A DNA stretch of 64,000 nt from Diadema setosum (Eukaryota > Echinodermata > Echinoidea > Diadematoida > Diadematidae), in NCBI RefSeq assembly GCF_964275005.1, contig NC_092694.1, positions 37,339,971 to 37,403,970 on the forward strand. Direction: 5' to 3'. The position numbers and the translations under genes were made by a program. This document shows positions 9,216 through 52,006 of this stretch, in pieces; within the stretch, counting starts at the first letter, position 1; the number at the start of each line of letters is the position of its first letter. The notes beneath the pieces are model-generated. The model had not been told where the DNA came from, did no database searches, and saw only the letters and a list, made by a program, of their open reading frames with translations.

Positions 9216-10511
9216 TTGTCCCCGCCGAACGAGTTCGAGCAGGGGACTATGAATCGGGCTCTGTACGTGTGTGTGTCCGTGTGTCCGTCCGTCCGTCCGT
9301 CCGTCCGTGTGTCCGTCCATGTGTGCGTCCGTGTGTGATCAAAATCTTCAATTTGCTACTTCTCTGTCATTTATGAGCCAATTTTGATTCTGTTTGCTTT
9401 ATATGATAGCACTACATGGGAGCTTTGAAACTTCTACACAGAATTTCAGTCGTGACCTTTGACCTTGACCTTAGACCTACAATTGTATATTGTACATTTT
9501 GCTACAAAGTGCTACTCCTTCGCCATTTCTAACCCGATTTCGATTCTGTTTGCTTTATATGATGGCACTAGGTGAGGGCTTCAAAACTTGTACACAGAAT
9601 TTTGACCTTTTACTTCTTTGACCTTTGACCTTGATTTTTGACCTGTATTGTACATTTTGCTACAAAATGCTACTCCTTCTCCATTTCTAACCCGATTTCG
9701 ATTCCGTTTGCTTTATGTGATGGCACTAGGTGAGGGCTTCAAAACTTCTTCACAGAATTTTGACCTTTGACTTCTTTGACCTTTGACCTTGATTTTTTGA
9801 CCTATATTGTACATTTTGCTACAAAATGCTACTCCTTCGCCATTTCTAACCCGATTTCGATTCCGTTTGCTTTATGTGATGGCACTAGGTGAGGGCTTCA
9901 ACACTTGTACACAGAATTTTGACCTTTGACTTCTTTGACCTTTGACCTTGATTTTTTGACCTGTATTGTACATTTTGCTACAAAATGCTACTCCTTCGCC
10001 ATTTCTAACCCGATTTCGATTCCGTTTGCTTTATGTGATGGCACTAGGTGAGGGCTTCAACACTTCTACACAGAATTTTGACCTTTGACTTCTTTGAGCT
10101 TTGACCTGGATTTTTTGGCCTGTATTGTACACTTTGCTACAAAATGCTACTCCTTTGCCATTTCTTACCCGATTTCAATTCTGTTTGATTTATGTGATGG
10201 CACTAGGTGAGGGCTTCAAAACTTCTACACAGAATTTTGACCTTTGACCTTTGACCTTAATTTTTGACCTACATTTTGTTGTACATTTTGCTACAAAATG
10301 CTACTCCTTCGCCATTTCTAACCCGATTTCGATTCCGTTTGCTTTATGTGATGGCACTAGGTGAGCGCTTCAAAACTTCTACACAGAATTTTGACCTTTG
10401 ACTTCTTTGACCTTTGACCTTGATTTTTGACCTTTATTGTACATTTTGCTACAAAATGCTACTTCCGGGGGGGACATATATTACGCACCGCGTAATTTCT
10501 ACTTTTCCTTG
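9216..10511 (+). mobile_element. Helentron-like non-autonomous element (HINE), copy 1
   Basis: The element starts TTGTCCCCGCCGAACGAG and ends TTTCTACTTTTCCTTG. Its 5' end contains a CGAAC-GA-GTTCG hairpin, followed by a (CCGT)n microsatellite (9280-9335). The body is a variant first unit plus tandem units of about 157 bp, marked by CTACTCCTTCGCCATTTC near 9511, 9669, 9828, 9987, 10146 and 10300. Near the 3' end ATTACGC-ACC-GCGTAAT (10480-10496) forms a hairpin that stops 15 nt before the terminus, as in Helitron-type elements. The flanks (TAT and TTTTCATTT) fit insertion between two T residues without a target duplication. No protein is encoded. The assignment to the Helentron group rests on architecture, not on a transposase match. 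Confidence 0.75.
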
Positions 10512-10612
10512 TTTTCATTTCTTTAATATCTTGTGTGTTTCAGCAGTGGCACAAACTAGTGGGCCGTCATAGCTTTTTGATACAAGAGTGTTTATACACA
10601 TAGCAGGGGCGG

Positions 10613-10758
10613 ATCCAGGAATTCTGTAAAGAGGGAGCGCCTTTTCAAGATTAAAGGGGGGGGCGCATGCACCCTCCCCCCCCCCCCCACCCCTGGATTT
10701 ACCAGAAATAAAGGGGGTGTGCACCTGGTGCACCCCCCCCCCCCTGGATCCGCCACTG
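10613..10758. mobile_element. Small TIR element with CAG-GGCGGATCCAGG ends
   Basis: CAGGGGCGGATCCAGG at the left is matched by CCTGGATCCGCCACTG at the right. The 146-bp interior is G- and C-run rich. CAG-type ends are common in hAT-like MITEs, but I could not find an exact 8-bp target duplication. The same ends recur at 20594-20718 and 38591-40231. Confidence 0.8.
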
Positions 10759-13833: not shown

Positions 13834-14028
13834 GTGTTGGAGATTGTCTGCTGCAAATCTTTCTGCTGCATTTTATAGCACACACTCACCAAAGATCATA
13901 ATTCAAATCCTATGTATTCACGATAAGATTATAGCTGCATTGCAAACATGCTCATGCAAAATATGCAGCTGTCTATGTGATTATATTTTTCTTCATTTTC
14001 TTGTGAGCACTAAAATTTGATCGGAACT

Positions 14029-17000
14029 ATGGGCTACTTTCATTGCATAGATAGGTTGCTGGTGAGCTTCTTTTCGAGATATGGCAAGCTGATAGGGCGG
14101 CATCCTCTGCCCTTTCTGCTGGGGTCAATCCTGGTAGCACTCGGCCTTGGCACGGGGCTGATGTTCATTCGTCTTGAAACAGACGTGATGTACCTGTTCA
14201 CGCCTCAGGAGAGCCAGGCACGAGTTGAGAGTGACATCATATATGACATTTTTCCTGTGGACTACGAGGAATATTTGCCGAATCGTGGGAAAGGTGTGAC
14301 TGATCTCGGCTCTAACGTAATCGTCAAGCCGAAGGTTGGTGATAATGTTCTGACCGAAGCTGTCATCACTGAAATATTGCGCTTTGATGCCGGTGTACAA
14401 GATGTCACCGTGCAAGATTGGAATGATACCGAATGCAGATACGACTGTTTATGTGCGATGTGGGAAGGGTCATGTCTGGTCAACCCAGTGCTCCAAGCGT
14501 ATGATTTTAATGCAAGTCGGGTGTCCAGCATCAATTTGACGCATCCCTTCCATCATTTATCGGAGAGGAGCGTTGTGTTTCTTGGCGCTTCTCTTGGAGA
14601 GGTTACAATGAAGGATGGAGAAAACTCGACGGTAGCCACTGCGGCACTCCTGTCCTTGTCGTATCACCTGAAGTCCACTTCTGAATTCCAGTCCCTTGGT
14701 AGGAGATGGGAGAAGGAGTTTCTGAAGTACGCCGATGGATTCCAGTCAGACCACGTCGCTCTCTCGTACATCGTGTCTCACACGCTGGAAAGAGAAATCA
14801 CAAACTTGACCCTCACCGTGTTGCCCTTCTTCGCCGTGACATGCGTTCTCCTGGTGACTTTCGCGGTGGCCTCGTGCCTGGTGGCTGACTGGGTGTTGGG
14901 CAAGGCCATCCTGGGTTGCTTGGGATTCATCTCAGCCGTGCTGGCCATCGTAGCGTCATCTGGGCTCCTCTGCTTCCTTGGGTTCCGCTTCAACATTGTG
15001 GCAGCCTCCATGCCTTTCCTTATTATTGGTAAGTCATAGAACCATTGAGTCCTGTGGTATATTGACTTTGAAAAGCATCACGTCTTCTTCATTAAACTGG
15101 CAACTCTAATTTTATTAAATGTATCCTTTATTCAAGAAAATTCAATGGAAAAAAGAATAGAATTGTACCAGTTTGCCAAATCATGATTGCTATGTAAATT
15201 CATCATCAAATGTATGTATTACTATGATACAAGCAGTGCGAAAGAAATGATGTTACATGCCATTTTAAAAACAATTTGAAGACCAGGATTGTTATCTATT
15301 AAATGTTTTAATAATTGATCATCAAACATGTGTATTACATATAATATTATGCTATAAGCAGTAGGAAGGAATCAGCTTTGTTTAAAATGTATGCCTTAAA
15401 CAACTTGAAGACCATAATTTGCAGTTCCTGGTTGGACATCTTTTTTGTGGTTACGGTTTTGGAGTTGGCTGTAGTTTTATGAGAGACAATCTTTCATTCT
15501 GTGTTAGCATGGAATATATATTTTTCTTTTGTCTTTCCACTTGTCCTGTGTAGGGATTGGCATTGATGATATGTTCATCATGCTTGCAGCATGGCGCAAG
15601 ACCAATCCAAGAAGCACAGTGGAAGAACGCATGGGAAAGGCATATTCTGAAGCAGCCGTCTCCATCACCATCACCAGCATCACGGATGCTCTGGCCTTTG
15701 GGATAGGAGCAATCACCCCACTACCGGCTGTTCGCATCTTCTGTCTCTTCACCGGTGTGACGGTGGTGTTTGATTATCTCTTCCAGGTCACGTTCTTTGG
15801 CGCCTGCATGGTGTACAGCGGGAGACGAGAAGCAGCAGGGCGTCACTGCATCACGATGCTGAAGGTGGTACCCCAAGATGAAGCCAAGTCCAAATTGTAC
15901 AAACTGTTCTGTGCAGGTGGGCTGTCAAAACGGGACCAAGGACTGGACCTGAAGCAGTCTTGCGAAACGGCCCTCATGACCTTTTTCAAGGAGCACTATG
16001 GCCCTGCGCTCATGACCACACCCGCCAAGATCCTGGCATTATTCCTCTTTTGTGTTTATATCGGAGGAGCAGCATACGGATGCTTTTTTGTTACTGAAGG
16101 ACTGGAAATGAAATCACTCGCTGGAGATGGTTCTGTAGCTCACCAGTACTTTGACACATTGGTAAGAGACTTTTCGCAGTATGGCCCTGCAGTGTCCGTT
16201 GCAATTCTGGATCACCTCAACTACAGTAGTCCAAAGGTACAAGAAGATGTGGAGCGTATTGTTCGGGATTTTGAAAGCAGCATGTACATTCACTCTTCAG
16301 ACTTGACAGAGTTCTGGCTAAGAGACTACTTAAAATTTCTTGATATGGCAAACATTCCAGAAAAATCCAGGACAGAATATTTTATGACATTACTTGTAGA
16401 TTTTTTTCTCAGAATGCCTGCATTTTCCAGATATTCTCAGGATATCGTGTTTCAGGAGGGATCCAATCAAACTATCATAGAAGCATCAAGATTCATGCTG
16501 CTGGGTGATAGCTTGATCACAACAACACAGCAGATGGATATGATGGCTGATGTGAGAAAAAGAATTGAGGACAACGAAATGAACATGACAGTGTTCTCAC
16601 CAATGTTCATAATTTATGAGCAGTTTGTCATCGTCAGGCCCTTGACACTTCAGAATCTTTCCATCGCCTTAGGGAGCATGTTCCTGGTTGCTCTCTTGCT
16701 CATCCCGCATCCGTTCTGTGCTGTCATGGTGACAGCTTGCATCGTCTCCATCCAGGTGGGTATCTTCGGCTACATGTCACTCTGGGACGTTCCGCTGGAT
16801 GGCATCTCCATGATCAACATCATCCTCTGCATCGGATTCAGCGTCGATTTCTCCGCCCACATCACTTACTCTTTCCTCTGCGACCATGATGCTCAGCACA
16901 GAGACTGCCAGCGGAAGATGACGACAGCCGAGAGACATTCGGTGATGGCGCTCTACTCCCTCGGCATGCCCATCATGCAGGGGGCGTTATCAACCATACT

Positions 17001-17301
17001 GGCTATTCTGGCCCTCTACTGGTCGCCGAGCTATATCTTCCGAGCTTTCTTCAAGATCATGTTCATGGTGATGGTCTTCGGGATGCTGCACAGTCTGGTC
17101 TTTCTACCGGTCCTGCTCTCCTCCCTTGGATGTTGCTTCAAGATGACAGCCCCTCCCTCCAGCGGTTCCCCGTACAAGATGAAAGAGGATGTTGCTCAGA
17201 AGGGGAACCATGAATCAGGTAAGGTGGAGTTGGCATTTGTGGATGATGGAACAGTGTTACGTGTCTACCCGACCTTTGATGGGCGTGTCACGGTGCTGTA
17301 A
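14029..17301 (+). CDS. Patched domain-containing protein (PTCHD3-like)
   Basis: Two coding exons, 14029-15028 and 15554-17301, join in phase to give 915 residues. The intron begins GTAAGT and ends TGTAG. The start is the first ATG after an in-frame TAA at 14011. The product is a multi-pass membrane protein of the patched/PTCHD (RND) family, which has a sterol-sensing domain; relatives act in sterol or Hedgehog-linked transport, but the substrate here is unknown. A first membrane segment lies near residues 26-47, followed by a Cys-containing, N-glycosylation-rich extracellular loop. The sterol-sensing-type helices begin near 250. The GIGIDDMF motif at 334-341 is split by the intron, and its second-half counterpart FSVDFSAH lies near 762-769; both carry the acidic residues typical of RND permeases. 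The length is normal for the PTCHD group (roughly 850-1000 residues) and the frame is intact. Exact orthology within the expanded invertebrate PTCHD set cannot be settled by eye. Confidence 0.94.
15197..15425. repeat. Diverged tandem duplication in the PTCHD intron
   Basis: Two neighbouring segments of about 115 bp share the same order of motifs: ATCATCAAA, TGTATTAC, ATAAGCAGT or ACAAGCAGT, then TTGAAGACCA. They differ by many substitutions and small gaps. This looks like an old local duplication inside the intron. Confidence 0.6.
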
Positions 17302-38404: not shown

Positions 38405-38645
38405 CTGGGGGATTTATTCGTAGAAAGGTGATGTGTCATTCCACTGAGGACACAAAAAACAATCCAGAGAATCCATTTTGGGCAACGTGATTTTGTTGGA
38501 AATGAAGTGTGCACCACCAGATCGTGAAAGACACATAATAATGGGGTGGATATTACATGCACTTACATGTACACATGGGTGAATTAAGTGATGTGGGGCG
38601 GATCCAGGAATTCCAGAAAAAAGGGGGGGGGGCAAAATGAAATTA

Positions 38646-38688
<43 letters not shown>

Positions 38689-38720
38689 TATATATATATA
38701 TATATATATACATACATATA

Positions 38721-40079
38721 TGAAGAGTTTTTTGCAAAAACCGATAAGTCCATTTTTGTCCCCGCCGAACGAGTTCGAGCAGGGGACTATGAAACGGGCT
38801 CCGTACGTGTGTGTGTCCGTCTGTCCGTCTGTCCGTCTGTCCGTCCGTCCGTCTGTGCGTCCGTGTGTGATCAATAATGTTCAATTTGCTACTTCTCTGT
38901 CATTTATGACCCAATTTTGATTCTGTTTGCTTTATATGATAGCACTACATCGATGGGAGCTTTGAAAGTTCTACACAGAATTTCAGTTGTGACCTTTGAC
39001 CTTGACCTTTGACCTATATTGTACATTTTGCTTCAAAATGCTACTCCTTCGCCATTTCTAACCCGATTTCGATTCCGTTTGCTCTATGTGATGGCACTAG
39101 GTGAGGGCTTCAAAACTTCTACACAGAATTTTGACCTTTGACCTTGATTTTTTACCTATATTGTACATTATGCTACAAAATGCTACTCCTTTGCCATTTC
39201 TAACCCGATTTCGATTCCGTATGCTTTATGTGATGGCACTAGGTGAGGGCTTCAAAACTTCTACACAGAATTTTGACCTTTGACTTCTTTGACCTTTGAC
39301 CTTGATTTTTGACCTATATTGTACATTTTGCTACAAAATGCTACTCCTTCGCCATTTCTAACCCGATTTCGATTCCGTTTGCTTTATGTGATGGCACTAG
39401 GTGAGGGCTTCAAAACTTCTACACAGAATTTTGACCTTTGACTTCTTTGACCTTTGACCTTGATTTTTGATCTGTATTGTACATTTTGCTACAAAATGCT
39501 ACTCCTTCGGCATTTCTAACCCGATTTCACTTCCGTTTGCTTTATGTGATGGCTCTAGGTGAGGGCTTCAAAACTTCTACACAGAATTTTGACCTTTGAC
39601 TTCTTTGATCTCTGACCTTGATTTTTGACCTATATTGTACATTGGCTACAAAATGCTACTCCTTCGCCATTTCTAACCCGATTTCGATTCTGTTTGCATT
39701 ATGTGATGGCACTAGGTGAGGGCTTCAAAACTTGTACACAGAATTATGACCTTTGACTTCTTTGACCTTTGACCTTGATTTTTTTACCTATATTGTACAT
39801 TTTGCTACTAAATGCTACTTCCGGCGGGGACTTATATTACGCACCGCGTAATTTCTACTTTTCCTTGTTGAAGATTTTGAAGTACGGTCTCTGTTATAAA
39901 GTACAAAATAATACATTTTAAATGATATATTGGTCACTACATAATAAAGGTATATTTTTGAAGTTATGGTCAAAAGAAGCAAAAATTTTATTATTCCCTT
40001 TATTCTTCTTGACCTTTAATCGCAAATATCTCCATTTGACAAATATGGACTTATCGGTTTTTGCAAACAAACTCTTCAT
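38721..40079. mobile_element. 247-bp MITE (TGAAGAGTTT ends), copy A, interrupted
   Basis: The ends TGAAGAGTTTTTTGCAAAAA and TTTTTGCAAACAAACTCTTC are inverted repeats of about 33 bp, flanked by TA-rich DNA. After the first 35 bp the MITE is broken by the 1112-bp element at 38756-39867 and resumes at TTGAAGATTTTGAAGTA. Without the insertion it is about 247 bp and matches the uninterrupted copy at 51758-52006 along its whole length. Confidence 0.93.
38756..39867 (+). mobile_element. Helentron-like non-autonomous element (HINE), copy 2
   Basis: Same ends as copy 1 (TTGTCCCCGCCGAACGAG and TTTCTACTTTTCCTTG), 1112 bp, with about five internal units of 140-160 bp rather than seven. The 3' hairpin ATTACGC-ACC-GCGTAAT is at 39836-39852, again 15 nt before the end. 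CGGCGGGGAC near 39822 is the exact inverse of the 5' GTCCCCGCCG, giving the asymmetric inverted repeat typical of Helentrons. Joining the flanks CCATTT and TTGAAG restores exactly the sequence of the empty MITE copy. Confidence 0.8.
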
Positions 40080-51757: not shown

Positions 51758-52002
51758 TGAAGGGTTTGTTTGCAAAAACCGATAAGTCCATTTTTGAAGA
51801 TTTTGAAGTATGATCTCTGTCATAAAGTACAAAATAATACCTTTTAAATGATATATTGGTCACTACATATAAAGCTATATTTTTGAAGATATGGTCAAAA
51901 GAAGCAAAACTTTTCTTATTATTTTCTTTATTTTTCTTGACCTTTAATCGCAAATATCTCCATTTGGCAAATATGGACTTATCGGTTTTTGCAAACAAAC
52001 TC

Positions 52003-52006
<4 letters not shown>
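51758..52006. mobile_element. 249-bp MITE (TGAAGAGTTT ends), copy B, uninterrupted
   Basis: The ends TGAAGGGTTTGTTTGCAAAA and TTTTTGCAAACAAACTCTTC are inverted. It continues CCGATAAGTCCATTTTTGAA without a break, so it is the empty counterpart of the MITE at 38721-40079. A (TA)n tract of about 40 bp follows on the right. TA-flanked ends would fit a Tc1/mariner-like MITE, but the microsatellite obscures the target site. Confidence 0.93.

What the first reader, a model, noticed from the sequence alone, without database searches (positions are those of the whole stretch)
38756..39867. Helentron-like element whose insertion site can be read from an empty paralogue in the same window
The MITE at 38721-40079 carries this 1112-bp element, and the uninterrupted MITE at 51758-52006 shows the original site. 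Removing TTGTCCCC...TTCCTTG restores the empty sequence exactly, with T on both sides and no target duplication. A 3-bp TTG duplication is the only alternative, and the second copy (9216-10511) argues against it because its right flank is TTTT. Together with the 3' hairpin 15 nt from the end and the exact inverse GTCCCCGCCG/CGGCGGGGAC, this matches Helentron-associated elements (HINEs), known from insects, fish and molluscs. The family name in this lineage is unknown to me.
Basis: partly seen in the sequence, partly recalled or inferred. Interest (0 to 1): 0.75.

Follow-up and report, generated by a model that had tools for sequence, protein, structure and literature searches.

The report
Helentron-type jumping DNA with readable target
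This is one copy of an abundant, probably recently active, non-coding rolling-circle transposon (a HINE) of a known kind; its value is that its copies show its insertion rule and that it carries repeats of a hormone-receptor-like motif.

Summary
Removing 38756-39867 restores the MITE sequence, and 100 of 100 listed uninterrupted MITE sites in the genome have the five T that this predicts. The 3' tail occurs 2,307 times. In 40 sampled tails the right flank begins with T, and the 36 with a 5' end begin TTG. A TT duplication is rejected: genome-wide the first right-flank base is non-T in 10 copies, the second in 144. The anatomy is that published for HINEs, the non-autonomous Helentrons: 5' subTIR with its inverted repeat, microsatellite, 158-bp array, 3' subTIR, 3' hairpin. 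The genome holds open Helentron genes with Rep, helicase and endonuclease, but none of the stretches I read shares these ends, so the partner is unknown. The 158-bp unit carries a DR1-like nuclear-receptor motif; its 16-mer occurs 13,708 times. New member of a known kind.

The parts
38756..39867 (+). HINE copy under study, 1,112 bp, TTGTCCCC...TTTTCCTTG
9216..10511 (+). second HINE copy, 1,296 bp, more array units; inner 3' subTIR has one mismatch
38753..38755 (+). host bases T-T-T left of the element; the T at -3 is the one kept in 55 of 55 sampled copies
39868..39868 (+). host T directly right of the element (39 of 39 distinct sampled copies; 10 exceptions genome-wide after the exact tail)
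38758..38787 (+). 5' hairpin: subTIR GTCCCCGCCG plus the IR arm GGGGAC (38782-38787); -10.5 kcal/mol as DNA, z -2.9
38814..38864 (+). GTCC/GTCT microsatellite
38990..39015 (+). two tandem TGACCTTTGACCT (DR1-like) in the leader
39130..39819 (+). satellite-like array, 158-bp unit, 4.4 copies
39822..39831 (+). 3' subTIR CGGCGGGGAC, exact inverse of the 5' one
39836..39852 (+). 3' hairpin ATTACGC-ACC-GCGTAAT
39853..39867 (+). 3' terminal 15 nt, TTCTACTTTTCCTTG
38721..38755 (+). left part of the interrupted MITE
39868..40079 (+). right part of the interrupted MITE
51758..52006 (+). uninterrupted MITE paralogue (empty site)

Best explanation
A non-autonomous Helentron (HINE) mobilised in trans by a Rep-helicase-endonuclease protein of the Helentron type. 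Shown: fixed ends, no target duplication longer than one base, a host target T-N-D^T, terminal hairpins and subTIRs, some copies over 99% alike, open Helentron genes in the same genome. Inferred: the Rep (HUH) nuclease nicks at the 5' end, the element is copied or peeled off as a single strand, the 3' hairpin marks the stop, and the product is joined into a nick at TND^T without duplicating host DNA. Because the element begins with T and ends with TTG, both junctions (TND^T left, TTG^T right) again read as the target, so one cleavage specificity would serve start, stop and target. The register may be one base over, i.e. element TGTCCCC...CCTTGT inserted after TNDT; sequence cannot tell these apart.
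For: Ends and empty site. Tail count 2,307, control 0. 36 of 36 copies with a 5' end start TTG, 40 of 40 tails are followed by T (the 5' search pattern itself held TTG, 4 edits allowed; the 20 further left ends were found without it and also read TTG). First right-flank base non-T in 10 copies, second in 144, genome-wide: a duplicated TT would decay equally at both bases. T at -3 in 55 of 55, C at -1 in 0 of 55; non-T at -3 in 19 exact-start copies genome-wide. The two bases next to the element are host DNA: the MITE site, and a CATTT array that is restored across L096 (19-bp tract against 6-14 for other registers) and L085 (16 against 8-15). Young copies: 17 size-matched copies 95.8% alike on average, best pair 99.73%. 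Rep, PIF1 and Exo_endo_phos in one open frame of 3,401 aa. Published HINE and Helitron2 anatomy: PMC4067079, PMC7492417, PMC5148889 (named sections and passages seen).
Against: No autonomous copy with these ends was found. One 20-kb stretch around a Helentron gene lacks the 5' end (18-mer, up to 4 mismatches), the subTIR (1 mismatch) and the hairpin (3) on both strands; only a poor 3-mismatch match to the last 16 nt appears on the minus strand. Flanks of two more genes show nothing, and 3' sides of two members of a second family only three 4-mismatch matches to the last 16 nt. A search for the exact 3' end with other upstream bases gave 11 places, which look like HINE variants from the few bases shown, none within 2 Mb of a Rep match (coordinates compared by eye). 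The 3' hairpin alone is modest (14 of 200 shuffles fold as well). The genome-wide denominator for T at -3 did not complete; 2 of the 19 exceptions have C at -1. A 1-bp T duplication cannot be excluded.
Confidence: 0.92

Rival explanations
1. A cut-and-paste MITE or other DDE-type element with a 2- or 3-bp duplication (TT or TTG) and subterminal repeats.
For: At the MITE site alone, TT and TTG duplication registers fit; TT follows the element in 37 of 40 tails.
Against: TTG follows in only 6 of 40 tails, 5 of 39 distinct. Genome-wide 144 copies have T then non-T against 10 with non-T first; the three copies of that kind (L006, L046, L063) and L086 keep TT on the left. Ends are asymmetric: one subTIR lies 2 nt from the 5' end, the other 36 nt from the 3' end.
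Confidence: 0.03
2. A canonical Helitron1 derivative (5'-TC, CTRR-3', A^T target).
For: No duplication and a 3' hairpin near the end.
Against: Ends are TTG/TTG or TG/GT, an inverted repeat is present, and the target is TND^T.
Confidence: 0.03
3. The two bases at -2 and -1 belong to the element as a variable 5' filler, so the target is simply T^T as published.
For: Would make the obligate T at -3 and +1 the two bases of a TT target; PMC4067079 section 8 reports a variable number of terminal T in Helentrons.
Against: The MITE empty site would then have three T, but 100 of 100 listed have five; the CATTT tracts at L096 and L085 shorten to 6 and 8 bp. Copies 99.73% alike (L005, L006) differ in these two bases.
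Confidence: 0.06

Closest known systems
HINE / DINE-1 elements, non-autonomous Helentrons (PMC4067079; sections 5 and 8 and search passages seen)
   Same: subTIR 2 nt from the 5' end and a second one before the 3' end, IR arm beside the 5' subTIR (as in DINE-1), 3' palindrome, microsatellite, tandem repeats, T-rich target, no coding.
   Different: subTIR match is 10 bp and 36 nt from the 3' end, where mite HINEs have 12-15 bp and about 38-60 nt; the autonomous partner is not identified; target here is T-N-D^T with an obligate T three bases out, not stated in the passages seen.
Cg_HINE elements of the Pacific oyster (PMC7492417; abstract, part 1 of Results and section 9 seen)
   Same: Same order of parts: 5' subTIR, IR, microsatellite, satellite-like array (about 165-bp units), 3' subTIR, palindrome; TT-rich target; no duplication.
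   Different: Unit here is 158 bp; sequence relation not tested because the consensus sequences are in figures.
Fusarium FoHeli Helitron2 elements (PMC5148889; section 6 and passages seen)
   Same: Terminal hairpins (FoHeli1/2), asymmetric inverted repeats, target written both as TNAT^T and TNAT^A for FoHeli1/2; FoHeli3-5 start TGCCT and end CTCCTGT, close to TGTCC...CCTTGT here in the shifted register.
   Different: Fungal; no endonuclease found there; third target position is A there, A, G or T here; no preference established for FoHeli3-5.
Helitron2 as compiled in PMC5148889 (section 6)
   Same: Target TTTT^T or C fits T-N-D-T.
   Different: No freedom at the middle positions listed.
Bacterial IS91 (target logic recalled; PMC4778049 passages only name it as a rolling-circle relative)
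   Same: Logic of one tetranucleotide serving as target and at an element end.
   Different: Different host domain, sequence and ends.

Membership tests
HINE (non-autonomous Helentron) | subTIRs, one 2-4 nt from the 5' end and one about 38-60 nt from the 3' end | tested here: met
   10 bp exact, 2 nt and 36 nt from the ends; just outside the mite figures in PMC4067079 (12-15 bp, about 38-60 nt)
HINE (non-autonomous Helentron) | palindrome 8-35 nt from the 3' end | tested here: met
   7-bp stem, 3-nt loop, 15 nt from the end; folding alone is modest, 14 of 200 shuffles as good
HINE (non-autonomous Helentron) | insertion in T-rich/TT sites without target duplication | tested here: met
   a 1-bp T duplication cannot be told from none
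HINE (non-autonomous Helentron) | no coding capacity, high copy number | tested here: met
   2,307 tails; the only listed stop-to-stop frame of 120 aa or more touching this copy, 38414-38899 minus, covers its first 144 bp and the flank
HINE (non-autonomous Helentron) | shares ends with an autonomous Helentron | tested here: inconclusive
   Helentron genes present but ends not shared in the stretches read nor near any of 11 variant 3' ends
Helentron (autonomous, same genome, L011) | Rep + helicase + endonuclease in one ORF | tested here: met
   OTU, DUF6570, Helitron_like_N, PIF1, Exo_endo_phos in a 3,401-aa frame scanned as two adjoining pieces
Helitron1 | 5'-TC...CTRR-3', A^T target | tested here: not met
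DDE-type MITE | fixed target duplication | tested here: not met
   a 1-bp duplication remains possible

The most novel reading that the evidence does not exclude
Helentron/Helitron2 nucleases read one short site, T-N-D^T, in the target and at both element junctions. The element carries the right half at its start and the left half at its end, so each insertion regenerates the site twice. The published 'TT', 'TTTT' and 'TNAT' targets would be partial views of this one rule. Separately, the family has seeded the genome with thousands of perfect DR1-like nuclear-receptor motifs.
Probability: 0.45. Interest if true: 0.55.

Novelty: new member of a known kind. Interest (0 to 1): 0.38.

Why it matters
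As far as I recall no active Helentron has been reconstituted, and the sources seen here give its target as TT only. A family with about 2,300 countable tails and thousands of copies of one empty site lets the cleavage rule be read from sequence, and predicts what a Rep assay should cut. The DR1-like load, if bound by receptors, would be a rolling-circle counterpart of the Alu-driven spread of DR2 elements (PMC1785376, search listing only).

Tried and rejected
TT and TTG duplication: rejected by right-flank counts. T^T with one host T directly left (element TGTCC...CTTG, no duplication): predicts six T in the empty MITE; 100 of 100 listed have five.

L044 looked like a rolling-circle tandem (two 5' ends, one 3' end). 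The right flank seems to follow an array unit for about 13 nt, so I read it as a copy nested in a 3'-truncated copy; not proven. Three 3' ends 2,965 bp apart are a host tandem duplication.

Both ends in IMG/VR viral contigs: 0 exact matches. Four sequence strings in papers: 0 papers. Ends of Helentron family A: L028 and L029 stay alike (99.5% over 3,439 bp, 99.0% over 3,647 bp) to the limits of the overlapping stretches fetched, so they may be a duplication and do not give the ends; comparison with L011 suggests a 5' limit near L039:809, without these ends.

DR1 conservation: the 16-bp motif is 99.0% conserved in 64 units against 96.3% for the rest outside the anchor used to find units. Of 65 CpG-free windows not overlapping it, one is as conserved. 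Units are not independent, so this is weak. Host lineage was not identified; the planned test did not complete.

Full report
What is there. The window lies in a 912.7-Mb assembly of 102 contigs. Position 38756-39867 holds a 1,112-bp element inside a MITE, and 9216-10511 a second copy. Parts in order: TT, then GTCCCCGCCG, which with GGGGAC forms a 5' hairpin (-10.5 kcal/mol, z -2.9); a GTCC/GTCT microsatellite (38814-38864) and a 158-bp array (39130-39819); CGGCGGGGAC; a 7-bp hairpin; and 15 final bases. The 35 distinct full copies read are 483 to 1,309 bp long and fall mostly in size classes about one 158-bp unit apart.

Abundance and age. The 25-nt tail occurs 1,164 and 1,143 times on the two strands at up to 2 mismatches; reversed control 0. 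Seventeen copies of 1,100-1,150 bp are 95.8% alike on average and 96.5-98.3% like their consensus; the closest pair is 99.73% alike. Seven of the 17 were picked as best matches to the window copy, so this leans young. Recent activity is likely.

Ends and target. Samples: 40 tails from 8 best-match loci, 30 loci listed first on contig C1 and the two window copies. L001 repeats the window copy and was dropped, leaving 39 distinct tails and 35 distinct copies with a 5' end; 4 tails (L048, L050, L052, L070) had no recognisable 5' end. Twenty more left ends were taken out of the 33 rows without a locus. All 55 left ends read TTG (the pattern used for the first 35 held TTG with 4 edits allowed, the one for the other 20 did not). 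Base -1 is T 32, A 17, G 6, C 0; base -2 is T 45, A 7, C 2, G 1; base -3 is T in 55 of 55, while base -4 is T in 24 of 55. Right base +1 is T in 39 of 39, +2 in 36 of 39. Genome-wide, the exact 22-nt tail is followed by non-T 10 times (one of them the altered member of a tandem duplication) and by T then non-T 144 times. Genome-wide, non-T at -3 before the exact 22-nt start occurs 19 times, 2 of these with C at -1. The count for T at -3 was asked nine times and not answered, so no genome-wide percentage is given.

Are the two bases at -2 and -1 host or element? At the MITE site the empty sequence has five T in 100 of 100 listed matches of 3,871, so they are host there. Two copies, chosen by eye because they sit in CATTT repeats (both flanks of 8 of the 20 further copies were read), have CA at these positions: joining flanks at TTG...CTTG gives an unbroken period-5 tract of 19 bp (L096) and 16 bp (L085); leaving the two bases out gives 6 and 8; the one-base and two-base shifts give 14 and 15 (L085 separates the last models poorly). 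So the host site is T-N-D^T, and TTG...CTTG is the net gain. A one-base register shift (TG...CCTTGT after TNDT) is equivalent.

Mechanism. Shown: fixed ends, the target rule, no duplication longer than one base, terminal hairpins. Inferred from published work on Helitrons (PMC4778049, passages seen: HUH Rep, 3' hairpin, no duplication): single-strand rolling-circle transposition by a Rep supplied in trans. That both junctions read as the target (TND^T left, TTG^T right) suggests one cleavage specificity; this step is inference. The closest precedent seen is Fusarium FoHeli1/2, written as TNAT^T in a legend and TNAT^A in the text, and Helitron2 with TTTT^T or C (PMC5148889 section 6).

Partner. 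Helitron_like_N has 49 matches here; 21 lie in open frames of 3,276-3,517 aa without stops. The one read in full has OTU, DUF6570, Rep, PIF1 and Exo_endo_phos, the Helentron hallmark; a second family has PIF1 and Exo_endo_phos. The stretches read (20 kb around one gene, flanks of two more, 3' sides of two second-family members) do not carry the HINE ends; only poor matches of 3-4 mismatches to the last 16 nt appear. The exact 3' end with altered upstream bases has 11 places, none within 2 Mb of a Rep match. The partner may be absent from the assembly, too diverged at the ends, or share more upstream sequence than my pattern allowed. The matching 5'-end search did not complete.

Motif load. The unit holds TGACCTTTGACCTTGA, i.e. 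AGGTCA-A-AGGTCA on the other strand (a DR1 in the notation of the PMC1785376 and PMC4524655 abstracts, seen in listing) overlapping TCAAGGTCA (extended half-site, recalled). There are 5.8 DR1 per copy on average. Of 5,000 dinucleotide shuffles of the unit, 1 has a DR1 and 0 have four TGACCT. The 16-mer occurs 13,708 times in the genome, reversed control 0. Of the 100 listed places, all from the start of contig C1, 64 have a neighbour at one or two 158-bp steps; the others may belong to degraded copies or other families. Binding is not shown.

Verdict. A well-documented new HINE family. The anatomy is ordinary for the class; the target rule and motif load are the parts worth following.

Noticed in passing
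window 51758-52006; genome: Host MITE: 249 bp, terminal inverted repeats, flanked by TA on both sides, 3,871 matches to its empty-site pattern genome-wide; the full-length scored copies are 96-100% alike. Looks Tc1/mariner-like (recalled).
   Followed up: partly
L010-L038; G000: 21 of 49 Rep matches lie in single open frames of about 3,400 aa; the one read has OTU, Rep, helicase and endonuclease. Nearest neighbours among 26 compared Rep stretches are 61.5-99.9% alike without gaps, so several Helentron subfamilies, some young.
   Followed up: partly
L071 + L044: A HINE copy directly abutting the array of a 3'-truncated HINE: two 5' ends, one 3' end.
   Followed up: partly
L072: 2,965-bp host tandem repeat, three 3' ends, carrying a HINE; one copy has the right-flank T changed to C.
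   Followed up: yes
L099: Upstream of one HINE lies the inverted 5' end of another, about 80 bp away, a head-to-head pair.
   Followed up: no
L063 flanks: Left flank holds AGGTCAAAGGT-like repeats in the other orientation, hinting at a second, related element family as insertion target.
   Followed up: no
window 14014-17301: Two long open frames matching Patched / sterol-sensing domains, a likely host gene.
   Followed up: no
window 10609-10690 and 38600-38640: Shared GGATCCAGGAATTC-like stretches near both HINE copies, each beside a G-rich tract; possibly another repeat family.
   Followed up: no
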